From Pseudochrobactrum asaccharolyticum (GTDB lineage Bacteria > Pseudomonadota > Alphaproteobacteria > Rhizobiales > Rhizobiaceae), in NCBI RefSeq assembly GCF_003314995.1, contig NZ_QNRH01000002.1, positions 1 through 64,000 on the forward strand: a stretch of DNA of 64,000 nucleotides, in the 5' to 3' direction. The notes below the pieces were generated by a model. That model was given only the letters and a program-made list of their open reading frames with translations. It made no database searches and was not told where the DNA came from. Shown piece after piece: positions 3,667-39,384 of the stretch. Position 1 is the stretch's first letter; every line of letters begins with the position of its first letter. The translations under genes and the position numbers were made by a program.

Positions 3667-3764
3667 GGAACTAATAAAGAGTTTTACATACAAGTATCTT
3701 GCAATTATTAATTGATTGCGCAATGATGTTTTATAGATCCCACGGCAAAAGGAGTTCACCAGTA

Positions 3765-4232
3765 ATGGCTGCAGAAATCATTGATCACAATACGCTGTCA
3801 CGCCTTGTTGAAGCCGGTGCTGTGCGTGGTGCCCATGTTATCGGTCAACCCGGCGGATGGTCGCTGATGGTCAAATATGGGATGGCCGAACGGGCTCTTG
3901 CCGCGCAACGTAGCCGTCAAGTGCGTGTATTCCGGCGTATGGAAACGCTTGTTACCTATCTCAAAGACATGGGAATTCAGCACTTCGATGTTGATGCTGC
4001 TGATTATGAGAACGACGGTGGAAAATCCTATACGCGCCCAGACCGCAGTGCTGCTTTACGCCAGACTCACGAAGCTGCAACCCATAATAAATGGTTCCTA
4101 GAACAGGTTGAAACAGCCCTACATGAGGCCGAAAATCCTAATACAGAGTGGGTTTCTCATGAAACTGTTAAAGAGGACATGGCACGCCAACGCATAGAAT
4201 TATTGGCGCGTATCAAAGGCGAAACTGAATGA
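3765..4232 (+). CDS. ParC-like partition-associated protein with antitoxin tail
   Basis: The 155-residue protein starts at an ATG behind aaaaggagttc. Residues 1 to about 85 (EIIDHNTLSRLVEAGAVRGA and FRRMETLVTYLKDMGI) resemble ParC-type partition-associated proteins found beside plasmid par or TA loci. The C-terminal part (EQVETALHEAENPN, then VKEDMARQRIELLARIKGE) resembles the ParE-binding tail of ParD-like stability determinants. The stop overlaps the toxin start by 4 bases (ATGA), indicating translational coupling. The likely role is to neutralise the downstream ParE toxin and to autoregulate. The two-part nature is inferred from sequence style and not proven. Confidence 0.65.
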   Translation: MAAEIIDHNTLSRLVEAGAVRGAHVIGQPGGWSLMVKYGMAERALAAQRSRQVRVFRRMETLVTYLKDMGIQHFDVDAADYENDGGKSYTRPDRSAALRQTHEAATHNKWFLEQVETALHEAENPNTEWVSHETVKEDMARQRIELLARIKGETE

Positions 4233-4516
4233 AAATTGTCTGGCTCCCACAAGCACAGGCTAATCGCATGGATCTCATTACCTATATAGGTCAGGAAAAC
4301 CCACGTGCCGCTCTTAATCAACTCGACGAGATTGAGCAACAAATAGATAGGCTGATCGATTACCCTGAAATGGGACGTGTCGGACGAAAGCGTGGCACCC
4401 GAGAATTGGTTCTCAACCGAACGTCGTTTGTTCTTGTTTATCGCATTCAATTAAAGTTACAGAGTATAGAAATTTTGCGTCTGCTGCATGGTGCGCAAAA
4501 ATGGCCGCCGACCTGA
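4229..4516 (+). CDS. parE: RelE/ParE-family toxin
   Basis: The protein has 95 residues, the family's usual size. Typical features are the N-terminal WLPQAQANRMDLITYI helix, the RLIDYPEMGRVGRKRGTREL segment and the final beta strand plus LLHGAQKWP, as in ParE toxins that poison gyrase or RelE-like ribonucleases. The start overlaps the stop of the ParC-like gene, the standard antitoxin-toxin arrangement. It probably acts in plasmid or island maintenance. Confidence 0.85.
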   Translation: MKIVWLPQAQANRMDLITYIGQENPRAALNQLDEIEQQIDRLIDYPEMGRVGRKRGTRELVLNRTSFVLVYRIQLKLQSIEILRLLHGAQKWPPT

Positions 4517-5126: not shown

Positions 5127-5216
5127 ATATGGATTCCTTGATGATAAATGTTGCTCTCAAAAAGACCGCAAGGAAGCCAATCCAAATCCACTTTCTTTAA
5201 ATCCACTGATCCGACC

Positions 5217-5265
5217 TTGACAGGTACGAATTTGCTCCATACCAATACACCTGTATACAGGTATA
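5217..5265 (+). promoter_or_regulatory. promoter with palindromic operator before the binding-protein gene
   Basis: A perfect -35 box ttgaca at 5217-5222 is followed at suitable spacing by a weak -10 candidate near 5240-5251. Overlapping the -10 is a 20-bp palindrome at 5246-5265 with the core cctgtatacagg and one mismatched pair. Its position blocks transcription if bound. The GntR-type regulator encoded at 6981-7610 in the same operon is the natural candidate binder. Confidence 0.5.
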
Positions 5266-5291
5266 GCACACAGCCAAAAAGGGGGAACGTC

Positions 5292-6335
5292 ATGCTTAGG
5301 TCTTGTCTTATGGGGGCGCTTGTCAGCCTCGCATCTGTTACGGGGAGTTCTTTTGCTCACGCAGGTCCGGTTTTCGATGAAGTGGTTTCAACTGGTAAAC
5401 TTGTCTGTCTGGTGAGCCCAAGCGCTCCGGGTTTCTCGGTGCCAGACAGCTCCGGCGTGTTCCAAGGTTTTAATGCCGACTTTTGCCGTATGGCCGCAGC
5501 AGCAATTCTTGGTGATGCCAATAAAGCTGACATTCGTGGCGTTGGCTTTTCAGATTCTTTGAAAAATCTGGTATCGCGCCAAGCTCATATGGCATCGCGT
5601 TCAATAACGGAAACAGGCACACGTTCCGCTGATCCCGGCCTCTCCTTCGTCGCAACGACATTCTATGATGGTCAGGGCTTTATGGTGCCTAAAGCGCTTG
5701 GCGTGAAGTCTGCTAAGGAACTGAAAGGCGCAACGATCTGTGCGGAAGACGGCTCTACGACACTGCTCAATATTGCCGACTGGTTCGCCTCTGAAGGCAT
5801 TGAATACAAGATCGAGAATATTGCAGACAAGACAGCACGATTGCAGGCTTTTTATGCCGGAAAGTGCGACGCTTATGCTTCGGACATGACCGCTCTTGCC
5901 GCCGACCGCCAACTCGCTAAAAACCCTAACGACTACGAGCTCTTGCCAGAGGTTATTTCCGCGGAGCCATTGACCTTGGTAACACAGCCGGACGAAACCC
6001 TTGGCAAGGCAGTTCGCTGGGCGTTTGAAGTCATGCTCAATGCAGACGAGTTAGGTGTTAACTCAACAAATATTGATGCGACAATTGCCGATCTGGACAA
6101 GCAGCCAAAGGCTGTTCAGCGCTTATTCGCGAAGGATGGTGCGACCGCCGATATGGCCGCCAAGATGAAATTACCGACTGACTGGGCTTATCAAGTGATT
6201 AAACAGGTCGGCTCCTATGGTGAAGTATTCGATCGTCATCTCGGACCATCGACACCATTTGGTCTCACACGTGATGGCAGTCAAAACGCTTCAGTTAAAA
6301 ATGGCGGCCTGATGTATGCCTATCCGATACGGTAA
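5292..6335 (+). CDS. amino acid ABC transporter periplasmic binding protein (AapJ-like)
   Basis: The 347-residue protein has a Sec signal peptide (MLRSCLMGALVSLASVTGSS, cleavage near AHA). It then shows the type-3 periplasmic amino-acid-binding fold with GFNADFCRMAAAAI, the general L-amino acid receptor signature. It delivers amino acids to an inner-membrane ABC permease. ATG 5292 follows aaaggggga and is placed before the signal peptide; the upstream frame is not coding. Compared with AapJ/BztA proteins, conserved positions such as the metal-like SRTIT loop read SRSITET here, so binding preference may differ. Two phosphatase genes and a GntR gene separate it from its permease, which is truncated. 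Confidence 0.85.
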   Translation: MLRSCLMGALVSLASVTGSSFAHAGPVFDEVVSTGKLVCLVSPSAPGFSVPDSSGVFQGFNADFCRMAAAAILGDANKADIRGVGFSDSLKNLVSRQAHMASRSITETGTRSADPGLSFVATTFYDGQGFMVPKALGVKSAKELKGATICAEDGSTTLLNIADWFASEGIEYKIENIADKTARLQAFYAGKCDAYASDMTALAADRQLAKNPNDYELLPEVISAEPLTLVTQPDETLGKAVRWAFEVMLNADELGVNSTNIDATIADLDKQPKAVQRLFAKDGATADMAAKMKLPTDWAYQVIKQVGSYGEVFDRHLGPSTPFGLTRDGSQNASVKNGGLMYAYPIR

Positions 6336-6382
6336 GATGATAAACCTATGAATTGCGGGTTTTGAAAAACGGGAAGCAACGG

Positions 6383-6946
6383 ATGATCGACAACCAACTG
6401 GATCGTGATAATGATGATTTTATATCTATCCGGGCCATAGTCGATTGTCCTGGTGGCGGGCGTCTTGTGACGCTCGGTGCCCCCGGCTTGATGATTAATC
6501 ACCGTGGTGAAAGCTGGATCAATCCGGAGGGGATTGACAGGACATTGGAAGCCCTGACCCACCGACGGGTCGCCCTGCTTTTTCTTTTGGCGGGGGATGA
6601 TGACTGTACGCTTGGGTTCCGGCATATGCTTCGAGAACGTGTCAGGCGGGCAGGCATTGCTTTTATTACCCTCCCAATTGTCGATTTTGCAACACCGAAC
6701 AGATCTTGGATGCGAGCTTGGCAACGCCTGAGCGTGCCGATTTCGAAATATCTGGAGAACAATCAGTCGATTGCCTTGTGCTGTACCTACGGCGCTGGCC
6801 GCAGCGGTATGATTGCAGCCTATCTGCTGAACCGGTTAGGCCGACCTCTGGAGGAAGCTCTCTCTGAACTGCGTCAGCAGTTTCCAGAATCGGTTGAAAG
6901 TCCACTTCAAGAGGCTTGGCTATATGAACAATCCTCGGCCCGTTAA
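6383..6946 (+). CDS. Cys-based protein tyrosine/dual-specificity phosphatase-like protein
   Basis: The 187-residue protein carries the phosphatase P-loop CTYGAGRSG, with nucleophile Cys134 and Arg140, and an upstream Asp101 (IVDFATP) in the place of the general acid. There is no signal peptide, so it is cytoplasmic. ATG 6383 is chosen because gggaag lies 9 bases upstream; the frame also has an earlier TTG. It lies between an amino acid binding protein and a GntR gene, and another phosphatase follows. The P-loop has Cys-Cys where most family members have His-Cys. The substrate is unknown and may be a phospholipid, sugar phosphate or protein. Confidence 0.7.
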   Translation: MIDNQLDRDNDDFISIRAIVDCPGGGRLVTLGAPGLMINHRGESWINPEGIDRTLEALTHRRVALLFLLAGDDDCTLGFRHMLRERVRRAGIAFITLPIVDFATPNRSWMRAWQRLSVPISKYLENNQSIALCCTYGAGRSGMIAAYLLNRLGRPLEEALSELRQQFPESVESPLQEAWLYEQSSAR

Positions 6947-6980
6947 CACTCACGGTAAGACTTTAAGGAAAGACAACAGC

Positions 6981-7610
6981 ATGGCGTTGCAACAAACATT
7001 GAAATCCGGCCCATATCGCTCGGAAGAAATGTTACAGGAACTACGTTTTCGCATCTGCACGACGCATCCCGATACGCCGATGCTGCTGCACGAAGGCAAA
7101 CTAGCGCAGGAATTCGGTGTGAGCCGCACGCCCATAAGACAGGTTTTACAACGGCTTTCGTTTGAGCATATGCTTGAAACACGTTCCGGCGTAGGCACAA
7201 TGGTGAGAACACTTGACCCAATGCAGCGCGGGTTACATTTTTCCATGCTGTCGGATATCCTCCACCTGTGCACACGCTGTTGCGCGCAAAACTATACCAC
7301 TCAATCACGTATTCATATTGCCACGATCACGGAATTGTCGGCCAATCCGGACAACGAACCGATTGCACGTTACTTCACCCTTCGTGCGCAATTTCTTGAG
7401 CTGATTTCCAGTCTTGTACAAGATCAGATCCTAGCTGAAGCGCATGCCGCGTTACACTGGCGGGCAATCCGCTGGCGTATGCAGGCTGCTAATAATGATG
7501 TCGATAGTGCCTTTGCGGCATTGCGCAATACAATAACAAAAGTCACTGCAGCAGACACTCCCGCAGCACTTTTCGAATGCCTTGCAGCGGAACCGGAGGA
7601 AGTGGCATGA
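6981..7610 (+). CDS. GntR-family transcriptional regulator
   Basis: The 209-residue protein has an N-terminal winged helix-turn-helix (HEGKLAQEFGVSRTPIRQVL, then GVGTMVR wing) and a helical effector domain of the FadR/FCD kind. ATG 6981 has aaggaaag upstream; an earlier ATG at 6924 would overlap the phosphatase gene. The stop overlaps the next phosphatase start (ATGA at 7607). It probably controls its own operon through the palindrome at 5246-5265, responding to the imported ligand. Confidence 0.8.
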   Translation: MALQQTLKSGPYRSEEMLQELRFRICTTHPDTPMLLHEGKLAQEFGVSRTPIRQVLQRLSFEHMLETRSGVGTMVRTLDPMQRGLHFSMLSDILHLCTRCCAQNYTTQSRIHIATITELSANPDNEPIARYFTLRAQFLELISSLVQDQILAEAHAALHWRAIRWRMQAANNDVDSAFAALRNTITKVTAADTPAALFECLAAEPEEVA

Positions 7611-8140
7611 CCTTACAAAATACGAGTTTCATGCGCCCCGTTCATTTGCCGGACGGCGTATCAGGTGAACTCTGGCTCGGACCGATGCTCGGTCGGCTAA
7701 GAGGCTTTACCGAGGATATGAATGAGCTGCATGAGCACAAAATCACTCTGATCCTTAACCTCACACCAACCTGTGAAATTGAGGAGAAAGCGCCCGCTTA
7801 TGCGCAGGCGCTGACTGATGATATGAATATCGCTATCCGGCGGTTGCCAATCACCGACTTTGGCGTGCCGGATGATGATACAGAATTTTTCGACTTGAGC
7901 ATTCACGCAGCAAAAGTCTTACGCAGCGGTGGCAGAATATTTATTCACTGCGCCGCCGGTATAGGTCGGACAGGCACTATGGCAACTTGCGTTTTGCTGG
8001 CTCTCGGGATGACTGTTACGCAAGCTGTTTCCCGCATTAGTGATGCCGGATCAGGTCCCGAAACCAATACTCAAAAAGATTTGGTAACGCGTATCGCTAC
8101 CCGTATGCAGCACCGCGAACCGGTTGAAACGAGCCAGTAA
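7607..8140 (+). CDS. protein tyrosine phosphatase-like protein (second copy)
   Basis: The 177-residue protein has the full signature HCAAGIGRTG, with Cys115 and Arg121, and Asp84 in ITDFGVPD as likely general acid. This is the dual-specificity/tyrosine phosphatase arrangement. It starts inside the GntR stop codon, so it is translationally coupled. It shares architecture with the protein at 6383-6946 but the two are clearly diverged, so they are ancient paralogues or separate recruits. No signal peptide is visible. A role in dephosphorylating an imported or regulatory compound is a guess from context only. Confidence 0.8.
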   Translation: MTLQNTSFMRPVHLPDGVSGELWLGPMLGRLRGFTEDMNELHEHKITLILNLTPTCEIEEKAPAYAQALTDDMNIAIRRLPITDFGVPDDDTEFFDLSIHAAKVLRSGGRIFIHCAAGIGRTGTMATCVLLALGMTVTQAVSRISDAGSGPETNTQKDLVTRIATRMQHREPVETSQ

Positions 8141-8144
8141 ATCC

Positions 8145-9224
8145 ATGGATCAGAAACCGCAACATCTCACATCATCGTCTGTCGAGAAACCGCCAAAAGG
8201 CTCTGCTATTTCCTGGATGGATATTGGCGTCGCATTTACCATCCTCGCAATCTTTGCTCTTATCGTATTTAACATTAATTCCAACATGATTGCGGCTGGG
8301 ATTCAACCGGGTTTTTCATTTTTAACAAAGCAGGCAGGCTTTGATCTTGCTGAAAGTCTCATTTCCTATAATGCGAATGACAGCTATCTGCGCGCGATCT
8401 TTGCAGGTCTTGTCAATACGATTGTTGTAGCAGCAGTAAGCCTTATCATCGCTTGTTTGGTTGGTTTGGTCATTGGCCTGTTAAGCGTTAGCAATACGCG
8501 GATTACGCGACTGTTTGCGCTGGCTTATGTTGAATTATTCCGCAATATGCCTAAGCTGCTTGTGCTCCTAACAGGCAGCGCTGAGTTTTCGCTCCAAAGT
8601 GGTGAGTGGGAAACCAAAGGCAAATATTGCGAACCTAGCACTTTGCCAAAAGCAGACCAAGAGCGTACCGAGGCGCCAATCTATGCTCGCAGTTCTTTGG
8701 GCGAAACAGCCAGAGAAATAGAAGCTAATGAAACTACGCAAGCAGCTGAAAGCGCTCGTGTTCTACAAATGCTTGATGATTTGGGCAAAAGTCCCCACAT
8801 AGAAAATCAGGACATGCAAGAACCAACTGCCCAGCAATCCACACCACCACAATCGCACCCTTCTACGCAGGCCATCCAAGCGGATGCCGCCTCTCCAAGC
8901 TCAAACTCACATATGCCTCTACGCGGGAAATCTATTGCATTAAGCAGCACAGATGAAGCTGTCATACGCGAGGCTGTTAGCTTAAATCTTGCTGATGAGA
9001 CCTCAGCCCGGTTCCGCAATATTGCTGCCGTTGACATGGAGGATGGCACTTATATTGTGTGTGGTTTTGTGAACGGTAAGAACCAATTTGGTGCATATAC
9101 CGGCTATCAGATATTTTACGGAGTATATCGGCCCGTGGATCCAATTTTCGTAACAAAATACATAATAAAACCCTCTTTTGGCTTGAGTTTATGTGTAGCT
9201 TCAGGGGGTGAATTCAAACACTAA
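8145..9224 (+). CDS. chimeric ORF: truncated amino acid ABC permease fused to foreign hypothetical tail
   Basis: Residues 1 to about 142 match an AapQ/BztB-type permease: cytoplasmic start, one transmembrane helix near 30-50, the periplasmic segment with ANDSYLRAIFAGLVNT, two more helices and VELFRNMPKLLVLL. The EAA loop and the remaining helices are missing. From about base 8570 the frame continues into an unrelated hydrophilic, Gln/Pro/Ser-rich stretch and a C-terminal domain with DGTYIVCGFVNGKNQFGAY. The junction probably is the left border of the foreign element that follows. The permease part cannot form a working channel. Whether the tail is translated separately (for example from an internal ATG near 8769) is unknown. 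Confidence 0.6.
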   Translation: MDQKPQHLTSSSVEKPPKGSAISWMDIGVAFTILAIFALIVFNINSNMIAAGIQPGFSFLTKQAGFDLAESLISYNANDSYLRAIFAGLVNTIVVAAVSLIIACLVGLVIGLLSVSNTRITRLFALAYVELFRNMPKLLVLLTGSAEFSLQSGEWETKGKYCEPSTLPKADQERTEAPIYARSSLGETAREIEANETTQAAESARVLQMLDDLGKSPHIENQDMQEPTAQQSTPPQSHPSTQAIQADAASPSSNSHMPLRGKSIALSSTDEAVIREAVSLNLADETSARFRNIAAVDMEDGTYIVCGFVNGKNQFGAYTGYQIFYGVYRPVDPIFVTKYIIKPSFGLSLCVASGGEFKH

Positions 9225-9327: not shown

Positions 9328-9906
9328 ATGTCACAACTACGACAAGCTCGCACAATCACTACAGCTCAATTTCATCAAGCGCTCAACACCGCTGTAAACC
9401 TGAGACACCCCCATCGCAATAAAGCCACTCTATTGTTGAGTTTCAAAGCAGGCTTGCGCGCTGGAGAAATTGCCCAGCTCGATTGGCGGATGCTGCTTGA
9501 TGCGAATGGAAAACTTGGAACGACACTCAATCTGCCTGGAATTATTACCAAGTCTGGTCGGGCAAGGCGAATTCCAATTCATCCTGATTTACGCAAAGCA
9601 TTGCTAAAACTATATCGAATAACGGGGCCTTTAGGCCCCGTTATTCTGAGTGAGCGCGGCAAGGCAATGTCAGCGAAATCTGTCGTTAATTGGTTTAAAA
9701 ATATCTATGACAATACAGGCTTAGAAGGTTGCTCATCTCATTCAGGTCGCCGCACTTTCGTGACCAATGCTGCCCGGCTTATCCATAAAGCAGGCGGATC
9801 CCTGCGTGACGTTCAGCTTCTCGCAGGCCACCAATCTATCATTACAACACAGCGCTATATTGATGGTGATAGTGACGCTCAGCGTAAGCTTGTTAGCTTA
9901 ATCTAA
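9328..9906 (+). CDS. compact tyrosine recombinase/integrase
   Basis: The 192-residue protein is nearly all catalytic domain: Arg44 (AGLRAGEIAQLDW), Lys75, His138 and Arg141 (HSGRRTF), His168 (LLAGHQS) and Tyr177 (QRYIDG). These form the complete R-K-H-R-H-Y set of phage-type recombinases. The N-terminal arm-binding and most of the core-binding domain are absent, unlike typical 350-400-residue integrases. It probably integrates or excises the surrounding element, or resolves multimers. Confidence 0.8.
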   Translation: MSQLRQARTITTAQFHQALNTAVNLRHPHRNKATLLLSFKAGLRAGEIAQLDWRMLLDANGKLGTTLNLPGIITKSGRARRIPIHPDLRKALLKLYRITGPLGPVILSERGKAMSAKSVVNWFKNIYDNTGLEGCSSHSGRRTFVTNAARLIHKAGGSLRDVQLLAGHQSIITTQRYIDGDSDAQRKLVSLI

Positions 9907-9969
9907 CCTACCCCCCACCCTACCCAAAAATCAACAATAGGACCTCATGCATCATAGAGGAGAAGAAAC

Positions 9970-10332
9970 ATGCGCCCCAAAATAGAACGAATCAAGAACT
10001 TAAATTCCAAACCCATTAATGCCATCGCCATCCATAATGACCAACTCCGCAAACACCATATTGGTGGGCGAATAATGATGAGTAAGGGCATTTCAAATCT
10101 AGACGCTGCTCGTATCCATATGATCATGAAACAGATTGCGGATTTCAGTAACTTCAACAGTAGCAACGATCCGTATGAGGAACGTGATTGTGCCATCCTC
10201 GAAATCGACAATCTAAGCATCATGTGGAAAATCGATTATTACGATGAAACACTTGATGGCCATTCGCCCGATCCATCCAACCCAGATGTTACAGTACGAA
10301 TAATGACAGTCATGCTTGCTGAGGAGTATTAA
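9970..10332 (+). CDS. hypothetical 120-residue protein paired with peptidase gene
   Basis: The start ATG follows gaggagaagaaac, a strong ribosome site. The protein is mixed alpha/beta in appearance, with a Met-rich N-terminal half and an acidic C-terminal half (DDPYEERD-like and HSPDPSNPDVT segments). No signal peptide, membrane helix or known motif is visible. The following gene begins 2 bases after its stop, so the two are co-transcribed and probably function together. I do not recognise the family. Confidence 0.6.
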   Translation: MRPKIERIKNLNSKPINAIAIHNDQLRKHHIGGRIMMSKGISNLDAARIHMIMKQIADFSNFNSSNDPYEERDCAILEIDNLSIMWKIDYYDETLDGHSPDPSNPDVTVRIMTVMLAEEY

Positions 10333-10334
10333 CC

Positions 10335-10958
10335 TTGGCAGAAAAACCAATTCTCCCCTCAGATAGTAAGCTTAGCCCTTATCTACAGGGCAACTTAGAT
10401 TCACTCTGTAGCGTTTATGCCGTCATTAATGCATTGCGATGGACCCTAGCTGACCACCCACTATCTGCCAAAGGCGAACACTGGCGCATTCTTTTCGCTG
10501 AATTGAATGATTATGCCGTCAAAGAACTAGGGCTGCTCAGTCTATCATCACAGGGAATGGGTCTTAATGGAATGATTTGGCTCCTACGTACCGCTCAGCA
10601 ACATATGGCAGAAGCCCACGCTATAACCTTCAAAACCTACCGTCCCTTTGCATTACGTCGACCAGAGTCCAGCACCTGCGTTATCGGCGAAATCAAGGAG
10701 CACTTGCACTCACCTGGCACAGCAGTAATTACTGCGGTCTACGGCAAGCTGAACCATTGGTGCGTTATTAAAGGCATAAACGAGAAACATGCAATTTTAT
10801 TTGATAGCGACAGACTCTACCAGACTCCTCTCACTATATTCCAACTCACCGCTCATTCAAATTCAGCTTCACATTCTAGCCGAGCTCAAACTGGAAGTAT
10901 TCTGCTGCTTTCAATGGATAAAACAACCGCTTGTAAAAATATTATGCAGCATAGTTGA
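10335..10958 (+). CDS. papain-like cysteine peptidase-fold protein
   Basis: It starts at TTG 10335 behind gaggagtattaacc. The 207 residues show a papain/C39-like catalytic order: Cys25 in NLDSLCSVYAVINAL (with Gln18 nearby as a possible oxyanion residue), His141 in LNHWCVIKGI and Asp157 in AILFDSDR. The helix after the Cys and the beta strand around the His are as expected. No signal peptide is seen, so it acts inside the cell. Substrate is unknown; it could process a phage, host or element protein, or be a toxin or immunity-type effector. The small upstream gene may encode a partner or inhibitor. Confidence 0.6.
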   Translation: MAEKPILPSDSKLSPYLQGNLDSLCSVYAVINALRWTLADHPLSAKGEHWRILFAELNDYAVKELGLLSLSSQGMGLNGMIWLLRTAQQHMAEAHAITFKTYRPFALRRPESSTCVIGEIKEHLHSPGTAVITAVYGKLNHWCVIKGINEKHAILFDSDRLYQTPLTIFQLTAHSNSASHSSRAQTGSILLLSMDKTTACKNIMQHS

Positions 10959-10999
10959 CATATTTGATAATTAGATATTAATTCAAATAATGAGCCGGG

Positions 11000-11239
11000 C
11001 AAATTGTCCGCGATTTTAGTTCTAGCGAACTAAGACAGCTCGTACTTATGGCCTCCTAAATGAGGCAAGGTTTCAGAAATGAAGCTGTAAGTACGTCACT
11101 TAACTTGAAAAAGTTGAGTCCGCTCCGAAACTGACAACAATTCCAACATGCGTTGGGTTGAGGTTTCGGTGTGACGTCTTAGTGATTTTGTCCGCCTGCA
11201 ACTTCATCCCTTCGCCACAGAAGGTGATATTATGAAGTT
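11000..11239 (+). ncRNA. strongly structured leader or origin region (novel RNA candidate)
   Basis: This gene-free stretch packs many complementary segments. There is a hairpin at 11016-11033 (ttagttc/gaactaa). A small hairpin at 11051-11066 (gcctc/gaggc) lies inside the long-range pair 11041-11048 with 11088-11095 (cgtactta/taagtacg). A 9-bp stem with a GAAA tetraloop and one G-T pair spans 11098-11119. A long nested hairpin spans 11125-11169 (ccgaaac, caac and ccaac with gttgg, gttg and gtttcgg). The pair 11200-11207 with 11232-11239 covers the next start codon. The GNRA loop and wobble pair favour an RNA; a Rep origin is the main alternative. It resembles no riboswitch or ncRNA class I can name. 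Confidence 0.5.
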
Positions 11240-11603
11240 ACGTAAAACCGGCCGACGATCAGAACCGACAATCCAAGATACTTACTTAAAGTTTACAGAG
11301 CTTCTTGTTCGAGAGCATGGATTATCCCTAAATTTCCTGAACTCTGCGTCTACCAATAAAGTACGCACAAGAAAGCACCCAACATCAACATATGAACTGA
11401 CTGACCTCTTAAACGCTCAGCAGGCAGCGAGTGTCTTGGGCCTAAGTTTCAAGACCCTCGCGAATTGGCGCGTGTCCGGCAACCACTCTCTTAAATATAT
11501 AAAGATCGGTGGAGCCATTCGCTATCAATATAGCGACTTAATTGCGTTTTCTGACATTAACAAACGCTCAAACACCTCTCAAAAACAATCAAAACGCGGG
11601 TGA
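11232..11603 (+). CDS. helix-turn-helix (AlpA/excisionase-like) DNA-binding protein
   Basis: The 123-residue protein has a basic N-terminus and, from about residue 58, a MerR/AlpA-type HTH (LLNAQQAASVLGLSFKTLAN, then YIKIGGAIRYQYSDLIAF). This is the arrangement of excisionases and plasmid or phage regulators. The start codon and its ribosome site (gaagg at 11220) both lie in predicted hairpins of the upstream structured region, so translation may be controlled. The stop is followed 5 bases later by the Rep-like gene start, indicating one operon. It could be excisionase, Rep cofactor or regulator. Confidence 0.65.
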   Translation: MKLRKTGRRSEPTIQDTYLKFTELLVREHGLSLNFLNSASTNKVRTRKHPTSTYELTDLLNAQQAASVLGLSFKTLANWRVSGNHSLKYIKIGGAIRYQYSDLIAFSDINKRSNTSQKQSKRG

Positions 11604-11608
11604 GGAAC

Positions 11609-12445
11609 ATGTTGAAACACGACTACTTACCTGAAGCTTTCGAAACGTTTGGATCTACCAAAGAACGGCGCAAAAAAATTAGAAAGGCAGTACTTGCTTT
11701 AGACAACAAAGTAAAAATGGAAAAAAAGTGTTCTATTGATAATAGGTGTCATTCAGGGTTTTGCCCAACATGTCTACGTTTACTTAGAAAGAAGTTCCTC
11801 CGTTTTGTGCAACGAGAGGAATTAGCAAAACGTGAGTGGTATATGGTAACAGTCTTTGTTGAGGGGTGGACTAAACCTGCCGGCGATTTCGAACCATTTG
11901 GCGAACTCAAGAACAATCCAATCATTAAGAAGTTTCTAAAACAATTACGAAAAGTTGGGCAGCCAGATATGTTGCTTTTTGGATCAATTGAGACTGTTTT
12001 CAAGGTCCGAGACAATAAGCCAATTGGCAAACCATTTCACCTTCATATGTTAATCTCAGGGGCAAGTAAGGAACAGATCCGAGTTTCAGTTAGAAAAACT
12101 ATCCCACGCCCAACTATAGGCGTCCCTCTTCGCATTGATCATGTCCAGCAAACCGCTAAAGACTTAGTTCGGAGTTCATCTTACATACTCAAACAAACTT
12201 TTTGGTTACGCTCCGAAAGCAAAAAGGGGTTCAAGAAACTGGAAAGTCCAAAGCCTCAACAGCTCGCGGAACTGCTATCCAATCTGGGCACACATCAATG
12301 GGGTGATCGATTTTTTTATATAGGCATACGTTTTTGCTATGGAAAATTTAGCATTACACCCAATGTGAAATCGATGTTTACTAAAAAAACGAATAACAAA
12401 TCTCATAAATCACACACCCCCCTACCTAAAACACCTAAGAAATAG
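11609..12445 (+). CDS. Rep-like protein with zinc-ribbon and HUH-like motif
   Basis: The 278-residue basic protein starts at an ATG behind gtgagg. An N-terminal Cys cluster (Cys41, Cys47, Cys52, Cys55) resembles the zinc motif of rolling-circle Rep and plasmid transposase-like proteins. The segment KPFHLHMLISG fits the metal-binding His-x-His of HUH endonucleases, and SSYILKQTFW offers a catalytic Tyr followed by Lys. The C-terminus is Lys/Ser/Pro-rich and probably disordered. The likely role is nicking an origin to start rolling-circle replication of the element. The motif fit is by eye and other residues of the fold are not verified. Confidence 0.5.
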   Translation: MLKHDYLPEAFETFGSTKERRKKIRKAVLALDNKVKMEKKCSIDNRCHSGFCPTCLRLLRKKFLRFVQREELAKREWYMVTVFVEGWTKPAGDFEPFGELKNNPIIKKFLKQLRKVGQPDMLLFGSIETVFKVRDNKPIGKPFHLHMLISGASKEQIRVSVRKTIPRPTIGVPLRIDHVQQTAKDLVRSSSYILKQTFWLRSESKKGFKKLESPKPQQLAELLSNLGTHQWGDRFFYIGIRFCYGKFSITPNVKSMFTKKTNNKSHKSHTPLPKTPKK

Positions 12446-13049
12446 CGGGGTATGAGGTGGTTATATTGGTAACACTATGTAGCCACCTCAATCTTGCATA
12501 CGTTGATATATGGAAGAAACTGCCAGCATCCCTATTTTACCGCCTGCATCCCCAAAAATCATTCCTCTTTAAACAAAATTTCACGCTATCTGATAAAACC
12601 TCATGGCTTTTGAGGACATCAAATGATTTTGTAAAAGCTCTCAACTGTAGTTTATAGCTATTATATCCCTATTCATCCCTCACATCCCCCCAATAGATTT
12701 CTTCATCCTCATAAATCGCCCTAAATCATTAATGTCATCGCACGAGTTGAATAAGGAATAGCGAGGAGGTTCGGTTTATTTGAACAGTTTTCGGCGTTTC
12801 GCTAAATGGATTTTCACCTTGATTATGATGCCACCATCATCAGCGCCAGTGCGTCAAAATAAGCCTGATCGGATGTCTTCCGGTCAAGAGATGAAACTTG
12901 ACATCGAGTATTATAAAAACTTTGATATCGACCTATGCCAGCGCGGACCTTGGATACGGTTTTGTAGACATATCTACATAACCAGCTATAAATGGTCAGA
13001 TTTAACGTGAGCAGGTCAAGAGCATATAAATATTCCGAGCATCAACAGC
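12446..13049. other. gene-free stretch between the mobile element and the hydantoin operon
   Basis: About 600 AT-rich bases. Two frames (12457-12657 and 12780-13010) have no ribosome site worth noting, odd composition and no recognisable motif. A small hairpin (cctca/tgagg) occurs near 12598-12616. I see no att duplicate, promoter or RNA gene that I can support. Confidence 0.5.
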
Positions 13050-29740: not shown

Positions 29741-31141
29741 ATGCAATTCGACACCATCATCAAGAACGGTACAGTAGTGACCGCAAGCGACACATATCGC
29801 TGTGATGTGGGCATATCCGCTGGAAAGATCGTAGCTCTTGCAGAGAATTTAAACACGGCAAAAGAGATCATCGATGCAACAGGCCTGCTGATTATGCCCG
29901 GCGGTATTGATAGCCATGTGCATATTTCACAATATTCCGGTGATGGTATTGTTATGGCAGATGACTTTGCCAGCGCAACCTTGTCTGCAGCTATGGGTGG
30001 TAACACGACAGTCATGCCTTTTTGCTTACAACAAAAAGGCATGACTTTACGTGAGGCATTAACCGACTACCATGCATTGGCGAAGGACGACTGCCACATC
30101 GATGTTAGTTTTCATATTATCATCTCGGATCCAACCAGTTATGTGTTGGGCCAAGAACTTCCCGCACTGGTGCATGACGGCTATACATCAGTGAAGATCT
30201 TTATGACTTATGACGGCCTGCGGCTGCGTGATGACCAAATTCTTGAAACGTTAGACAGCGCCAGAAAATCCGGCGCTCTGGTGCTTGTTCATTGTGAGAA
30301 TGAAGACGTAATCCGCTTTCTGATTGCACGTCATGAAGACAACAGTGAATTCGCCCCCAGATATCATGCATCCAGCCGTCCTGCTGCCGCTGAACGCGAG
30401 GCAACGCATCGTGCCCTATCACTGGCAGAAGTTGTCGATACGCCTATCGTCATTGTTCATGTCTCCAACAGGCAGGCAATGGAAGAAATTCAACGGGCGC
30501 GTTTGCGCGGCAGCAAAGTGGCTGGTGAGACCTGCCCGCAATATCTGGTTCTCACAGCTGATGATCTGGACACTGCCGAGCTTGAGGGGGCGAAATATGT
30601 TTGCTCGCCGCCGCCCCGTGACCAGGCCAGTCAGGAAGCGTGCTGGGAAGGGATCGAAAACGGGACTTTCGATTTATTCTCCTCAGATCACTGTCCATTT
30701 CGCTATGCTGCACCTGAAGGAAAACTCAACGCCAAGGGTAAGGAAAATTTTCGTTGGATTCCAAACGGAATTCCGGGCGTGGCAACCCGACTTCCTATCC
30801 TGTTTTCCGAAGGTGTTGGCAAAGGCCGGATTGAGCTGAACCGTTTTGTGGCCCTTACTTCAACCAATCATGCAAAACTCTACGGGCTTTATCCGCAAAA
30901 AGGTACGATTGCTATCGGCTCTGATGCAGATCTGGCACTTTGGGACCCCAACAAATCTGTCGTGATTACCAATGATATCTTGCATCATGGCGCCGATTAT
31001 ACGCCTTATGAAGGTATGACAGTACAAGGATGGCCAGTCAGAGTGATGTTACGCGGCAAAACCATCATTTATGATGGTAAACATGTATCAGAAGAGCGCA
31101 ACGGTACATATCTCAAGCGCCAGCGTTCAATGCTTAAATAA
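29741..31141 (+). CDS. D-hydantoinase / dihydropyrimidinase-family amidohydrolase
   Basis: The 466-residue protein is a cyclic amidohydrolase: metal His59 and His61 (GGIDSHVHI), likely carboxylated Lys152 (SVKIFMTYDG), His in LVHCENEDV, His in IVHVSNRQ and Asp in FSSDHCPFRY. It hydrolyses hydantoins, dihydropyrimidines or related cyclic ureides to N-carbamoyl amino acids. ATG 29741 follows gaaggttg. With the amino acid importer and PLP enzyme it forms a catabolic unit under the FadR-type regulator. No carbamoylase is next to it; the M20 hydrolase at 53267 could serve. Confidence 0.85.
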   Translation: MQFDTIIKNGTVVTASDTYRCDVGISAGKIVALAENLNTAKEIIDATGLLIMPGGIDSHVHISQYSGDGIVMADDFASATLSAAMGGNTTVMPFCLQQKGMTLREALTDYHALAKDDCHIDVSFHIIISDPTSYVLGQELPALVHDGYTSVKIFMTYDGLRLRDDQILETLDSARKSGALVLVHCENEDVIRFLIARHEDNSEFAPRYHASSRPAAAEREATHRALSLAEVVDTPIVIVHVSNRQAMEEIQRARLRGSKVAGETCPQYLVLTADDLDTAELEGAKYVCSPPPRDQASQEACWEGIENGTFDLFSSDHCPFRYAAPEGKLNAKGKENFRWIPNGIPGVATRLPILFSEGVGKGRIELNRFVALTSTNHAKLYGLYPQKGTIAIGSDADLALWDPNKSVVITNDILHHGADYTPYEGMTVQGWPVRVMLRGKTIIYDGKHVSEERNGTYLKRQRSMLK

Positions 31142-31418: not shown

Positions 31419-32732
31419 TCAAACGTGCATCAAACCTTCACTCGCCTCCCCGATCAACAAGCTCCGAAACCGCGTCAGAATATCGGCGCTGCTGCCAACG
31501 TCGATGCTTGCCGTCTCTAGAATCGTGGCGTGTCCGGTTATGCGGTGGCATGCGTGCACAGCATCTTCGGCACCAAGACCCAGATGGTGGGGATAGAGCA
31601 GCGTCAGGCGCGGCGCGCCATAAAGCTGGGCATAGGCCATCATCTGATAGACATCGGCTTGCGTGACGCCCTGCTTGGGATCATCGATCCGAGCAGATAT
31701 GCGCTTCCACTTGGTGTCGATAACATGGACGACCCTGCCACGCTGGCGTATGAGTATATCGGGTCGGGTCTGGAATAGGGCACCTCCGCTGTCCTGCGCA
31801 CTCAAGCAGAACAGCCGTCCCCCTTGCAATGAAACGGCAAGCCCAGTTCCCGCCAACGCCCGAACAACCAGACGTCCGACGTACTCTTCGAACAGAGCGT
31901 TCATCTCGAACAACATCGCCGTACCCTGACCTGCGCCGCCCGTGGTCGTCTGATAACGGTTCTGCAAGAACAGGCGAGCCATAGCGAAGAGTTCCTGCCA
32001 GGACCGATTGGTGCGATCAATGACAACCTCATCACAGCGCAGTGCTGAAGGCGGGACATCGGCAATGTCGGCATAGATGAATGCCAACTCGCGCAAACGT
32101 TGCTGATTGGTACTACGCCGTGAGACGCGAAGAAGACGTACCACGGCCGCCTTCATGAGCCGGTTGAGCGCGATGTCTTCAGACAGCAGGTCAAACCGGC
32201 AGGCAAGGCGCGAGGAGTTGACCGCATGACGGGTGAACTGACGGGTGATGTCGAGTTGGCCGCGCAAGGTTGGCAAGTCCTCCTCACGTTCGAGATACCG
32301 GCGGGGCATCCCCTTGCGCAGGGCCGTGGTCAGCTTGTCGCAAAAGATGCGAATCAGGATTTCAAGCAGAGTTTCGCGCTGCCAGGCGAGATCGGTGATG
32401 ACACCCAGGTCGATCTTGAGATCGAGCGCGACGGCCAGCATATGGACCAGGCGTTTGCGTATCACCGCGTTCTGGTGATTGGGCGTTTCACCGGGCGCCA
32501 CATCGATCTTGGGCAGTATCTCCAGGCTCGCATCGCCCGCGGCCAGAATCCCGACCACGCCACGGGCGCGCAAGGCATGCCGGCCATGTTCAAGCACCCC
32601 GTCTCCGCCGCGGCCCGCAAAGACCGAGCGCGCCGCGAGAGCTGCCAGCCGGTCGGCATGGTGAGCCGGGATCTGCCCCTCGCCATCGCCATAGGAGAGC
32701 TTGTCCCATTCTCGGACAGTATAGGCCGGCAT
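31419..32732 (-). CDS. mcrC: McrC-like nuclease subunit
   Basis: The 437-residue protein has the McrC layout: an N-terminal beta domain and a C-terminal PD-(D/E)xK nuclease with Asp in FQTRPDILIRQ and the DTKWKRI motif. In McrBC, McrC cuts DNA when the McrB GTPase motor stalls. The start ATG overlaps the mcrB stop (TGATG), so it is translationally coupled. Its length (E. coli McrC is 348) is larger, with a long N-terminal half. It is the last gene of a three-gene operon. Confidence 0.88.
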   Translation of the reverse strand: MPAYTVREWDKLSYGDGEGQIPAHHADRLAALAARSVFAGRGGDGVLEHGRHALRARGVVGILAAGDASLEILPKIDVAPGETPNHQNAVIRKRLVHMLAVALDLKIDLGVITDLAWQRETLLEILIRIFCDKLTTALRKGMPRRYLEREEDLPTLRGQLDITRQFTRHAVNSSRLACRFDLLSEDIALNRLMKAAVVRLLRVSRRSTNQQRLRELAFIYADIADVPPSALRCDEVVIDRTNRSWQELFAMARLFLQNRYQTTTGGAGQGTAMLFEMNALFEEYVGRLVVRALAGTGLAVSLQGGRLFCLSAQDSGGALFQTRPDILIRQRGRVVHVIDTKWKRISARIDDPKQGVTQADVYQMMAYAQLYGAPRLTLLYPHHLGLGAEDAVHACHRITGHATILETASIDVGSSADILTRFRSLLIGEASEGLMHV

Positions 32733-35700
32733 CAGGCTGCAAAGTCCGAGAAATCGAAACTGGCCTTCACACTCCAGCGCCGTTTGTCACCACCCAGCTC
32801 ATCATCGACGAATCCGGCCGGAGCTGGCAGACTCTTTGATTCGAGGAAATGGGCGCCATTGGTGCCGTCGCCGTCGCCGAGCACTGCGGCGACCTTCGAC
32901 CAGTCCTCATAGAAATACTCGGCCAAAAGCGGGATGACCTTATGACGCATGACGTCCTCGACATCGGCGCGAGTGCTGCATCCGGTGAAATAGGCGTGGC
33001 CGATCTGATGCTCGCGATCGAAGAGATATTCAATCCGCTCATTGAGTGTGTGCAGCAGCTTGCACAGATCAATCCCGTCGAGATTTTCGGCATCGAGCTT
33101 CCGAGCATCCAGCGCCCGGCGAAGCTCTGCAACGTCCGGCATCAGCTCGCGGAAGGTGAAGCGGCGACGCAAGGCAGTGTCGAGCAGCGCAATGGAGCGG
33201 TCCGCGGTGTTCATTGTGCCGATAATGTGCAGATTGGCCGGCACGCCGAATTCATCGCCTGAATAGGGAAGATGCACCTTGATGGCGTTGGGCTGTCCCA
33301 GACGCTTGTCCGGCTCCAGGAGGGTGATCAATTCACCGAAGACCTTGGAAATGTTGGCCCGGTTGATTTCGTCGATGATCAGCACGAAAGCCTCGCGCTC
33401 GACGTCGGCATCAGCCTCCTTGATTGCGCTGTTCATGTAACGCTCGAGGGCCGGAATATTAAGACGCTCCTTCCTCAGCCCGTAAAGCGACCGCATCGTA
33501 AAATTACCGTCATAGATCTCAGTGACTGGCACGCCAGCAGCATCGTGCCAAAGCCAGCGCACGGCACGCCTCTGGCCATAGTTCCCCTCCGGCCGCGGAT
33601 GATATTCATAGGGACCCGTCACCTCGCCGATGGCGCGGATCAACCGATTCCCTTTTGACACGACAATGATGTCACCCGGCTTGAGACGATTCCGAAACGT
33701 GTCGGTGATCGACACCTGGCCAGACTGCAATGTGACCGGCCCTTCGATCTTGCCCTGTGCCTGGCATGTTTTCAGGATTTCTTCGGCATCCTCATACTTC
33801 GGGTCGCTCCAGTCTATGTCTTCCCAGCTCAGCAGCGTGTAGCCGCCCTCAATCACTTCCTCGAAGAGTTCCTGATCGCCGGCGTCACGGCTAAAACCGA
33901 CCGACATCTTGTAGATTTGGCGACCATCACTCGTGATCCGATTGCTGATTGCGGTCTTGCCCAATCCGGTTTCGGCCCGCTTCGCAATACGCCGGAAAAT
34001 CCCAGGCACTGTTTCCAGTCGAAAGCCTGCTGAGGATGCACCTTCATCGTCATCCGATCCGGTCATGGGCTGGCGACCCTCGACAAAATCTTCATAGGCC
34101 ATCGACTGGTGAAAGGTGACAAACTCAATCCGGCCTTCACCGGCAAGACGGCGATACTCGGCCATCAGCGCATCACGATCATCACGCATCGCTTCGGTTG
34201 CAGCGTCACCCAGGCAGAGCCGTACCGCTTCCCAGGCTGTGGCGTAGGTCTTGCCGGTGCCCGGCGGGCCGTAAAGGATAAGATTGGTTGCAGCGGGCAA
34301 TGTAGTGATGGGAGCAGGCGTCATGGTTGGGTGCCCTTCTGCCGAGGTGAGCTGATATGTGAAAACTGTCGAACTGCTAGGATTCGGTTCGGTGTGCGTC
34401 GGTGGCGGAACCTGGGCGCCTCGCTGGAAATCTTCGCTCCCAAGCGCGCTGCAGATCGCCGGATTCCGATCGTGCAAGCCCATATCGCGCCCAAGGTCGC
34501 CAGCACGGATCGCAACCTCTGCTGCGCCGTTCTCGCGGGCTTGTTCGACATAGTAGTTGCGGGCGCAGAGCCGGATCCGGTCGGCATCGCCGATTAGATG
34601 CTCGTATCGCTCTGGTGGCGTAACCGGCGCATCATCGCTATCGACGATGATATAGCCGGCATTGTAGAGCTGGGCAGCGGCATCGCCCTTCTGTCCCCAA
34701 CCACCATTGAGCTGCGTCTTGCTGCGCAGGAAGCCGACGAGTGGTTTGGAGGGGTATACTCGATTGGGTCTCTGGCGTGTCGAGCGCACCCAATAGTCGC
34801 GCGGCTCACCAAAGGCATCGAAGATGGAGCTGTGCTCCTGCGACTGGCGATAGCTGTCATAGGCGTCCATCGCCGCCTCGATCGCCCCGCGCGAAAAGGT
34901 TGCCACATCTTCATCCTTGTAATTGTGGACGATCCACAGCGCGCTTTGCACATCGATCATGTCGCGCGGTGCCAGGCCTAGGTCCGAAAATGCGCGGCGA
35001 ACCGCGTGCATGAAGCGCCATTCGTCGCGATAGGTGTCGGCCATCGACGCGTAATCGGGAAAGCGGCTGCCAACGGCTTCCAACCAGAGGTCTTGGCGCA
35101 CGGAATGGCGGATGTAGATGCCTTCGTCGGGCGCGAGATGGAGGAACAGGAATTCACCAATCTGGCGGGCCGGATCGGGTTTGCCGTCCGGGACGGCCGC
35201 GATCCAGGCATTGACGAAGGCTTCCAGTGCAGAGGCGTGACCGTCCGGCGCGCCGAGCGCAGCGTCGATAAGTACGCGCAAGGCTGGCCAGAGCTGATCG
35301 CGGTCGGCGTTGCCCTTGGGCGACATGGGCCAATAGACTCGCCATTGCAGCAAATTGCTCTTGGCCAGCGCGGTGTTGACGACATTAGCCAGATCCTGGT
35401 CGGAACCGCCCCGCGAGATCGCCGCCTTGAGCTCCGCGGCAATCTCCAGTTTGTACGTTCGCTCTGCCTGATCGAAATGCGGATCGGGCGGGTTGAACCG
35501 CTCGAAAGCGGGAAAGAAATGGCGCAGCCGCTCGATCCAGCGTGCGATCGCAGCCGGGTTGAGCGTCAACACGTCGCCGGTCTGCGGCAGCACGGCAATC
35601 AGCCGGCGCAGTGCCTCGGCATTTTCAATCCTCACGACAAAACAGTCAGCATCGCCAAAGGACCAATCGCGGCTAAGAGCGGAATGCCGCGCGCCGTCCT

Positions 35701-35971
35701 TCATACCGCTCTGATAGGGTCGCAGCTCGGTGGGGAAGCCATTCGACTCGACCAGATCTCGCCATTTTGCGTGCAGGAAGACGTTGGCCGGGTTCTGGAT
35801 TTCCCATATCAGCCGCTCGCCAGCACCAAATTCAAACCACGCCATCTTCTTGGTGATGCCATCGCCCGGACGCAGGCCCGCGCGGCGAAACACGTCGAAT
35901 AGCACCCGGCGCAGCGGTATCGGACGATCGCGTTCATTTTCATCGAGGCGCGCCTCGAAAGTCTCCCACAT
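32732..35971 (-). CDS. mcrB: McrB-like AAA+ motor with long N-terminal region and EVE/PUA-like insert
   Basis: The protein has 1079 residues. Residues 1-549 form an unrecognised region. From about 568 the AAA+ domain begins: Walker A GPPGTGKT (568-575), Walker B LIIDEINRANISKVFGEL near 864 and the McrB hallmark GTMNTADRSIALLDTALRRRF-like block (the NTAD GTP-binding motif). Between A and B (about 620-800) lies an inserted domain with LKPGDIIVVSKGNRLIRAIG, then EVTGPYEYHPRPEGNYG, which looks like an EVE/PUA-type fold that could read modified bases. ATG 35971 directly follows the upstream stop, with ttggagaattttga before it. Methionine 550 has agaaggg nine bases upstream and could start a short form. 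Confidence 0.85.
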   Translation of the reverse strand: MWETFEARLDENERDRPIPLRRVLFDVFRRAGLRPGDGITKKMAWFEFGAGERLIWEIQNPANVFLHAKWRDLVESNGFPTELRPYQSGMKDGARHSALSRDWSFGDADCFVVRIENAEALRRLIAVLPQTGDVLTLNPAAIARWIERLRHFFPAFERFNPPDPHFDQAERTYKLEIAAELKAAISRGGSDQDLANVVNTALAKSNLLQWRVYWPMSPKGNADRDQLWPALRVLIDAALGAPDGHASALEAFVNAWIAAVPDGKPDPARQIGEFLFLHLAPDEGIYIRHSVRQDLWLEAVGSRFPDYASMADTYRDEWRFMHAVRRAFSDLGLAPRDMIDVQSALWIVHNYKDEDVATFSRGAIEAAMDAYDSYRQSQEHSSIFDAFGEPRDYWVRSTRQRPNRVYPSKPLVGFLRSKTQLNGGWGQKGDAAAQLYNAGYIIVDSDDAPVTPPERYEHLIGDADRIRLCARNYYVEQARENGAAEVAIRAGDLGRDMGLHDRNPAICSALGSEDFQRGAQVPPPTHTEPNPSSSTVFTYQLTSAEGHPTMTPAPITTLPAATNLILYGPPGTGKTYATAWEAVRLCLGDAATEAMRDDRDALMAEYRRLAGEGRIEFVTFHQSMAYEDFVEGRQPMTGSDDDEGASSAGFRLETVPGIFRRIAKRAETGLGKTAISNRITSDGRQIYKMSVGFSRDAGDQELFEEVIEGGYTLLSWEDIDWSDPKYEDAEEILKTCQAQGKIEGPVTLQSGQVSITDTFRNRLKPGDIIVVSKGNRLIRAIGEVTGPYEYHPRPEGNYGQRRAVRWLWHDAAGVPVTEIYDGNFTMRSLYGLRKERLNIPALERYMNSAIKEADADVEREAFVLIIDEINRANISKVFGELITLLEPDKRLGQPNAIKVHLPYSGDEFGVPANLHIIGTMNTADRSIALLDTALRRRFTFRELMPDVAELRRALDARKLDAENLDGIDLCKLLHTLNERIEYLFDREHQIGHAYFTGCSTRADVEDVMRHKVIPLLAEYFYEDWSKVAAVLGDGDGTNGAHFLESKSLPAPAGFVDDELGGDKRRWSVKASFDFSDFAA

Positions 35972-39265: not shown

Positions 39266-39287
39266 CTCCACCCCTATGATCGAGCGC

Positions 39288-39326: not shown

Positions 39327-39384
39327 CAGCCGTAACGTATGTGGGTGTCAATATCTGGCATAGTAGTTGGTCTGGAGTTTTATC

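What the first reader, a model, noticed from the sequence alone, without database searches (positions are those of the whole stretch)
11000..11239. Dense, probably novel structured RNA or origin upstream of an HTH/Rep-like gene pair
Seen: within 240 bases there are at least six complementary segments, including a 9-bp stem capped by a GAAA tetraloop with one G-T wobble pair, and a 45-base nested hairpin with small internal loops. Inferred: wobble pairs and a GNRA loop point to RNA function. The place next to integrase, peptidase and Rep-like genes suggests copy control, a guide-type RNA or a rolling-circle origin. I know no riboswitch or ncRNA class with this layout.
Basis: partly seen in the sequence, partly recalled or inferred. 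Interest (0 to 1): 0.78.

Follow-up and report, generated by a model that had tools for sequence, protein, structure and literature searches.

The report
Structured leader RNA before Rep operon
Just upstream of a DNA-binding-protein and replication-protein gene pair in a mobile element lies an unusually strongly folded RNA of a type not found in the reference library; it appears to hide the start site of the first gene, so it probably controls when the element copies itself.

Summary
Among 582 windows of 220 bases (64 kb, both strands) this stretch on the + strand lies furthest below chance (z about -5.5). A second copy lies in the same genome on contig C19, in the same place between peptidase and HTH genes. 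There the RNA core is 146 of 159 identical, while the HTH and Rep proteins that follow are only 36% and 46% identical. Six of eight changed pairs of the window fold still pair, all by one-sided G-U exchange; two break. Conservation runs through the HTH start codon and stops there; in both copies a hairpin pairs that codon and encloses the ribosome-binding site. A third element (C1) has an unalignable, also folded leader with another possible anti-start helix. Best reading: a cis-acting translational control leader of a coupled HTH-Rep operon of an integrative element; its trigger is unknown. No Rfam family matches, and a covariance model found no further copy (0 of 396 order and 0 of 288 class genomes beside its own). 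With only two homologues found, covariation is thin; a DNA origin or a separate small RNA is not excluded.

The parts
9328..9906 (+). short tyrosine recombinase (integrase), 192 aa
   Evidence: Pfam Phage_integrase 2e-19; 90% and 74% identical to the C19 and C1 copies
9970..10332 (+). DUF3768 protein
   Evidence: Pfam PF12599 3e-29
10335..10958 (+). papain-fold cysteine peptidase homologue
   Evidence: No Pfam family at E up to 1; AF2 model pLDDT 77; Foldseek best E 2e-3; VIA-align Z up to 11.2 to papain-fold proteins; Cys25, His141, Asp157 invariant in 4 sequences
10955..10981 (+). possible promoter: TTGACA (10955-10960) and TATTAA (10976-10981), 15-nt spacer; TTGAC and ATTAGATATTAATT are kept in C19
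   Evidence: by eye; weak, inferred. The consensus scan instead proposed 10964-10991, which by eye is not kept in C19
10996..11010 (+). 5' hairpin CGGGCA-AAT-UGUCCG; C19 has a different hairpin (CGGC-UUGC-GCCG) in the same place. The scan also scores it as terminator-like
11014..11035 (+). H1 hairpin UUUUAGUUC-UAGC-GAACUAAGA, mutually exclusive with P1
   Evidence: window prefers H1 by 1.6 kcal/mol, C19 prefers P1 by 5.0 kcal/mol
11028..11186 (+). RNA core (model R1): P1 closing a junction of P2 (with P2a, P2b), P3 and P4
   Evidence: 146 of 159 positions identical in C19
11098..11119 (+). P3, 9-bp stem with GNRA loop (GAAA here, GCAA in C19)
11121..11173 (+).
11200..11239 (+). P5, start-site hairpin: AACUUCAU pairs with AUGAAGUU (start codon of the HTH gene), enclosing the ribosome-binding site AGAAGG (11219-11224)
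   Evidence: kept in C19; opening cost 15.6 (window) and 13.9 (C19) kcal/mol against a median of 7.1 in 45 control ORF starts
11232..11603 (+). HTH_17 protein (excisionase/AlpA-like class of HTH, class name partly recalled), first gene of the controlled pair
   Evidence: Pfam HTH_17 6e-06, 26.8 bits against a cut-off of 27; PHROG 66 excisionase and regulator 1e-05
11600..12445 (+). HUH-type Rep-like protein; its frame opens with a GTG at 11600 that overlaps the HTH stop by 4 nt, with an ATG at 11609
   Evidence: HLHM motif and four invariant cysteines; low-confidence model, viral Foldseek hits include named microvirus replication initiators; no Pfam family above cut-off, no PHROG or NCBIfam family

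Best explanation
The stretch is the 5' leader of the mRNA for the HTH and Rep genes of an integrative element. Its 3' hairpin P5 pairs the HTH start codon and encloses the ribosome-binding site, so translation is off or low by default (shown as a prediction and as conservation in two copies). Because the HTH stop overlaps a possible Rep start codon by four bases in all three elements of this genome, Rep production should follow HTH translation (inferred). The large junction upstream (P1-P4), with two mutually exclusive helices (H1 or P1), is most likely the sensing or refolding part that decides whether P5 opens (inferred). What it responds to (an element protein, an antisense or host RNA, a ligand or the state of transcription) is not known.
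For: Fold far beyond chance and stronger on the mRNA strand (255-nt leaders, + / -: window -7.5/-3.6, C19 -5.2/-2.7). Two-sequence consensus fold z -8.4 on + against -3.6 on - versus column shuffles. DNA identity window/C19: 10994-11193 0.865, 11101-11200 0.95, against DUF3768 0.71, peptidase 0.74, HTH 0.50, Rep 0.53 (integrase 0.84). Of 22 differences over 214 columns, 9 fall in 142 paired and 13 in 72 unpaired columns of the window-only fold (Fisher p 0.015); 6 of 8 changed pairs still pair; with the C19-only fold 7 of 9. Conservation runs through ATGAAGTTA at the start codon and then falls. Of 45 control starts, 2 cost more to open than the window's. In C1 an unrelated leader holds a 16-nt segment that can pair with an upstream start-like copy (-20.3 kcal/mol) or with the ribosome-binding site and start (-15.5). 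HTH/Rep overlap GTGA, ATGA, ATGA in the 3 elements. In C19 the HTH ORF has no Pfam hit, yet leader and P5 are kept.
Against: Only two alignable homologues; the kept pair changes are all one-sided, none doubly compensatory, and two pairs break in either fold. The favoured form differs (H1 in the window, P1 in C19). Possible partners that would free P5 (P2b or P3 strands) are weaker than P5 itself (-8.3 and -5.6 against -11.6 in the window; -4.1 and -3.9 in C19), so no clear ON state was found. Mean unpaired probability at the HTH start is not low (0.53; control median 0.41), and C1's downstream start costs only 9.7 kcal/mol to open, within the control range (its upstream start 16.0). C1's leader is less striking in parts (z -2.2 and -2.9; 301 nt z -3.4). 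Of three distant HTH or Rep leaders two fold well (G172 -4.9, G285 -3.8) and one does not and is stronger on the other strand (G276 -1.8/-2.5). No transcript data.
Confidence: 0.6

Rival explanations
1. It is a DNA element: the double- or single-strand origin (or transfer origin) of the element, where the HUH Rep nicks or priming starts on extruded hairpins.
For: Directly upstream of the HTH gene and an HUH-type Rep; also folds well as single-stranded DNA, z -4.6; origin regions of rolling-circle replicons carry several hairpins (recalled).
Against: The core is 146 of 159 identical between elements whose Reps are 46% identical. The RNA fold is clearly stronger on one strand, the kept pair changes are G-U, and conservation ends at the HTH start hairpin.
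Confidence: 0.15
2. It is a separate small RNA (P1-P4) made from the intergenic region and acting in trans, for example on replication or on another copy of the element, and only happens to end near the HTH gene.
For: The core is the best conserved part and stays intact in C19, where the HTH looks decayed.
Against: No terminator-like site after P1 in the scan; the only + strand one is the 5' hairpin 10996-11010. P5 and the start codon are conserved together with the core.
Confidence: 0.15
3. Antisense-controlled copy-number leader, as in pMV158 or IncFII-type plasmids: the structure is the target of a counter-transcribed RNA.
For: A rep operon leader with an occluded start is the usual place for such control (PMC4485353, abstract; IncFII recalled). 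A minus-strand terminator-like site lies at 11156-11143.
Against: The one minus-strand promoter-like site in 10850-11350 (10970-10941) points away from the leader; GNRA loops are not typical antisense-recognition loops (recalled).
Confidence: 0.1

Closest known systems
pMV158 copG-repB control (rolling-circle plasmid; PMC4485353, abstract and outline seen)
   Same: a small regulator (CopG) and an RCR rep gene, with rep expression limited at translation
   Different: there the RNA part is a short antisense RNAII with one hairpin; here a large sense-strand junction covers the start of the first gene, and no antisense promoter was seen
STAXI motif (RF01728; PMC2864571, passages seen)
   Same: structured motif near integrase and DNA-handling genes, with the same RNA-or-ssDNA question and stable tetraloops as the argument for RNA
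   Different: STAXI is made mainly of a repeated pseudoknot; no Rfam match here
Bacillus-plasmid (RF01691) and lactis-plasmid (RF01742) motifs (table of PMC2864571 seen; gene context recalled)
   Same: candidate structured RNAs of plasmids
   Different: no match at gathering level or up to E 5
int-alpA RNA motif (recalled only; the one paper found by name, listing seen, is about vesicle RNAs)
   Same: as recalled, placed between an integrase gene and an AlpA-like HTH gene
   Different: if its model is in the Rfam 15 library it did not match up to E 5; presence of that model was not checked
Integrative and mobilizable elements with RCR-type Rep or relaxase (PMC5704250, passages seen)
   Same: integrase, directionality factor and RCR-type initiator in one element
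   Different: here a DUF3768-peptidase pair sits between integrase and HTH, with a long structured leader; mobilization was not examined

Membership tests
any Rfam 15 family | score at or above the family's gathering threshold | tested here: not met
   0 matches in the window; with E up to 5 on 10940-11260 only DUF2693 RNA at E 1, 15.1 bits against 81.3, mostly on the promoter part
cis-acting translational leader (riboswitch-like) | structure directly upstream of a gene that hides its start site, kept in homologues | tested here: met
   as a prediction, in the two homologues found: P5, and conservation through the start codon; transcription itself not shown
cis-acting translational leader (riboswitch-like) | covariation (changes on both sides of pairs) across homologues | tested here: inconclusive
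   2 sequences only; window fold: 6 one-sided changes kept, 2 broken, 0 double
cis-acting translational leader (riboswitch-like) | direct sensing of a ligand or other signal | not testable with these tools
   no binding data
rolling-circle origin (dso) | Rep nick site in a hairpin within the region | not testable with these tools
   nick needs biochemistry; only indirect arguments
antisense-controlled rep leader | promoter for a counter-transcript over the leader | tested here: inconclusive
   none pointing into it in the consensus scan, which covers only sigma-70-type sites
HUH endonuclease (Rep neighbour) | His-hydrophobic-His motif and HUH fold | tested here: inconclusive
   motif in 3 of 4 aligned Reps, HLY in C1; model pLDDT 50; 25 viral Foldseek hits at E up to 1e-3, mostly unnamed, two of them named microvirus replication initiators; in PDB nothing under 1e-3, top rows are HPPK, AAV origin-binding domain third
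guide RNA of an RNA-guided system or retron | reverse transcriptase or RNA-guided nuclease gene in the element | tested here: not met
   family names of the five element genes scanned show none; the rest of the genome was not scanned for this

The most novel reading that the evidence does not exclude
A new class of bistable leader RNA, carried as a module with an integrase-DUF3768-peptidase cassette, that senses the state of an integrative element and gates translation of a coupled excisionase-like/HUH-Rep operon; elements in one genome carry two unrelated leaders (window/C19 type and C1 type) that can both hide the same gene's start.
Probability: 0.35. Interest if true: 0.68.

Novelty: new variant of a known kind. 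Interest (0 to 1): 0.52.

Why it matters
How integrated elements with HUH-type Reps keep their replication proteins silent and switch them on is little known (PMC5704250 heads its section on upkeep of excised elements 'An Unexplored World'). A large leader RNA that holds the start of the HTH-Rep operon closed would be a direct, testable switch, and the family would be an addition to the catalogue of structured RNAs, which can miss RNAs with very few sequenced copies.

Tried and rejected
Looked for more homologues. Genome contigs with the Rep (none) and the integrase alignment (two loci, one at 58%, L041, in which tblastn saw integrase, DUF3768 and peptidase but no HTH or Rep). Viral contigs with Rep, integrase, peptidase and a 22-base RNA pattern (relatives at 25-39% only, pattern 0). 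Element DNA against plasmids (43 Piscirickettsia records, integrase part only in the 20 rows listed); RNA DNA against phages and plasmids (none; 3 short matches at E 0.2-0.8). Proteins against plasmids and phages (one Azospirillum record at 24%; none; 149 records with an integrase under 60%). Of these, five stretches were looked at, counting the Azospirillum one. DNA of the stretch in 150 relatives (none). R1 in order and class draws (only its own genome; draws may overlap; stricter filters). R1 in 23 of the sources held then (the two copies, plus a minus-strand match of 20 bits at 10986-11101, taken as the mirror of the hairpins), and in 2 and 11 further loci (none). C1 leader in 200 relatives (only two matches of 26 and 34 bases at E about 0.01, taken as chance).

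Leader peptide: an ATG at 10990 opens a 9-codon frame, but C19 lacks the ATG and differs by 2 bases in length, so it was dropped. A mini-frame ATG-AAG-CTG-TAA in P2b (ATG-GAA-CTG-TAA in C19) may simply follow from pairing; not pursued. A GNRA-receptor-like UAUGG/CCUAAA in P2a (motif recalled) is not kept in C19. Recent gene conversion as the cause of the high identity was set aside because identity is lower on both sides (0.67 in 10901-11000 and 11201-11300) and differences favour unpaired positions.

The Rep model is poor, so its fold matches are only supportive. The 45 control starts are mechanical ORF starts of at least 150 aa, not annotated genes. Start positions used for G172, G276 and G285 are also mechanical. 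A Rep of G854 and the Azospirillum one were not examined for a leader. One search aligned a one-base placeholder by mistake and was not used. Column shuffles do not keep dinucleotides.

Full report
What was checked. Folded as RNA, 10990-11235 reaches -88.9 kcal/mol, z -5.76, with 0 of 200 dinucleotide shuffles as low; its complement reaches z -2.72 with 3 of 200; as single-stranded DNA z -4.64. In a scan of the window (580 grid windows of 220 bases on both strands plus 2 added at 11000, 10 shuffles each, pooled spread) the + strand windows at 11001 and 11000 have the two lowest z (-5.5, -5.3); the next is -4.9 (54561 +), which holds a terminator-like 20-nt inverted repeat. So it is the strongest structure signal of the window.

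Surroundings. Reading rightward: short tyrosine recombinase (9328-9906), DUF3768 protein (9970-10332), a papain-fold peptidase homologue (10335-10958), the RNA, an HTH_17 protein (11232-11603) and a Rep-like protein (to 12445). The Rep has the motif HLHM and four invariant cysteines; a low-confidence model (pLDDT 50) matches viral proteins, among them named microvirus replication initiators, but nothing in PDB under E 1e-3, with HPPK on top and the AAV origin-binding domain third. The same genome has two more elements with the same gene order, on contigs C19 (L011) and C1 (L012), both followed by a DUF927 protein. The integrase-DUF3768-peptidase part is also found without this HTH-Rep pair in the stretches taken from G988, G923, G661 and L041 (tblastn); two Paracoccus plasmids have integrase and DUF3768 side by side (annotation only).

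The second copy. C19 carries the RNA in the same place; its own fold has z -3.8 (263 nt) or -5.2 (255 nt). The core 11028-11186 differs at 13 of 159 positions; in the joint fold 10 of these lie in 47 unpaired columns and 3 in 112 paired ones, all three keeping a pair (that fold used both sequences, which favours it). With the structure taken from the window alone, over 214 columns: 22 differences, 9 in 142 paired and 13 in 72 unpaired columns (Fisher p 0.015); eight pairs change, six still pair and two break; all six are one-sided changes to or from G-U. With the C19 fold, nine change, seven still pair, two break (p 0.017). The consensus energy is 8.4 standard deviations below column shuffles on the + strand and 3.6 on the other, 0 of 200 shuffles in both cases. 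P3's loop is GAAA in one copy and GCAA in the other. G-U exchanges and GNRA loops point to RNA.

The conservation pattern. DNA identity between window and C19 is 0.84 for integrase, 0.71 DUF3768, 0.74 peptidase, 0.865 for 10994-11193 (0.95 for 11101-11200), then 0.50 for HTH and 0.53 for Rep. It falls right after ATGAAGTTA, the first codons of the HTH gene, that is after the 3' arm of hairpin P5, whose 5' arm is AACTTCAT at 11200-11207. P5 encloses the ribosome-binding site AGAAGG. Its one change (A-U to G-U at 11201/11238) and the two in its inner stem keep pairing. Opening the start region costs 15.6 kcal/mol (window) and 13.9 (C19), against a median of 7.1 and a 90th percentile of 12.5 in 45 control ORF starts, two of which cost more than the window's and four more than C19's. 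Mean unpaired probability there is not low (0.53), because part of the enclosed loop is open.

A switch? H1 (11014-11022/11027-11035) and P1 (11029-11036/11176-11183) share a strand and cannot coexist; the three strands are identical in both copies but for the H1 tip. The window prefers H1 by 1.6 kcal/mol, C19 prefers P1 by 5.0. This is what a bistable RNA would look like, but no strong partner that would free P5 was found. In C1 the leader cannot be aligned, yet it also folds (340 nt, z -5.1 on +, -2.6 on -; parts of it -2.2 and -2.9; 301 nt -3.4). It contains a segment at -43 that pairs either with a start-like copy at -79 (16 of 16, -20.3 kcal/mol) or with the ribosome-binding site and start (15 of 16, -15.5); its upstream start costs 16.0 kcal/mol to open, its downstream start only 9.7. 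The upstream copy is itself an in-frame start that would add 22 codons. So two unrelated leaders can hide the start of the same gene, which argues that start-site control is the function. The HTH stop overlaps a possible Rep start codon by four bases in all three elements (GTGA, ATGA, ATGA), so Rep may be coupled to HTH translation; in the window an ATG at 11609 is an alternative start. In C19 the HTH ORF gives no Pfam hit and lacks part of the motif, as if it survived as a translated lead-in to Rep; leader and P5 are nevertheless kept.

Other leaders. Upstream 255 bases of the window's integrase, DUF3768 and peptidase genes give z -1.1, -1.1 and -0.2. Distant HTH or Rep leaders give -4.9 (G172), -3.8 (G285) and -1.8 (G276, where the other strand is stronger, -2.5); the G172 fold has a different shape and was not pursued.

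Rarity. Rfam 15 has no match. A covariance model from the two copies (R1) finds only those two in the own genome, nothing in 396 other genomes of the order and nothing in 288 other genomes of the class (draws may overlap). DNA search in 150 relatives also found none. Metagenome contigs were not searched. The titles listed by nine paper searches (lists capped, open-licence library only) showed no description of this element or RNA; of these papers I saw passages of PMC2864571 and PMC5704250 and the abstract of PMC4485353.

Verdict. A real, conserved, strongly folded stretch, most likely the translational control leader RNA of an HTH-Rep operon in an integrative element (0.6). A replication or transfer origin (0.15), a separate small RNA (0.15) and antisense copy control (0.1) remain. 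New as a family, of a known general kind; two sequences are too few to call the structure proven by covariation.

Noticed in passing
L012 (G000:C1) 7063-7420, minus strand: Leader of the third element: two start-like copies and one anti-start segment that can pair with either; the upstream copy is an in-frame start that would add 22 codons to the HTH protein.
   Followed up: partly
L011 (G000:C19) 7390-7734, minus strand: HTH gene that has lost part of the helix-turn-helix (no Pfam hit) but keeps an open frame, the leader and the 4-base overlap with Rep.
   Followed up: partly
window 9328-10958; L041, L054, L055, L056, L058, L059: Integrase-DUF3768-(peptidase) cassette recurs in other genomes and, as integrase-DUF3768, on Paracoccus plasmids; function of DUF3768 and the peptidase unknown.
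   Followed up: partly
window 8124-8676: By eye the 5' part of an ABC amino-acid permease gene (no Pfam hit) whose similarity to other genomes stops at about 8574-8637, where the element seems to begin; best matches outside itself in 7 genus genomes only 35-38%.
   Followed up: partly
window 12745-12900: By eye resembles L041 about 4200-4330; possibly the end of a lost insertion sequence. No DUF927 gene was seen directly after Rep in the window, unlike in C19 and C1.
   Followed up: no
window 30010-30046 and 54584-54627: Strong inverted repeats (15 nt perfect; 20 nt 95%, terminator-like); the windows at 29921 and 54561 rank among the lowest z of the scan (-4.6 and -4.9).
   Followed up: no
window 3699-4516: ParE-type toxin gene (4229-4516) preceded by a 177-aa ORF without Pfam family.
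   Followed up: no
window 5148-8140: Solute-binding protein, GntR regulator and two dual-specificity-phosphatase-like proteins in one cluster.
   Followed up: no
window 31498-40656: A 9-kb block about 83% identical to Rhizobium leguminosarum plasmid DNA; related records name AAA ATPase, restriction endonuclease, RecB-like nuclease and WYL proteins. Looks like a defence island (inference).
   Followed up: no
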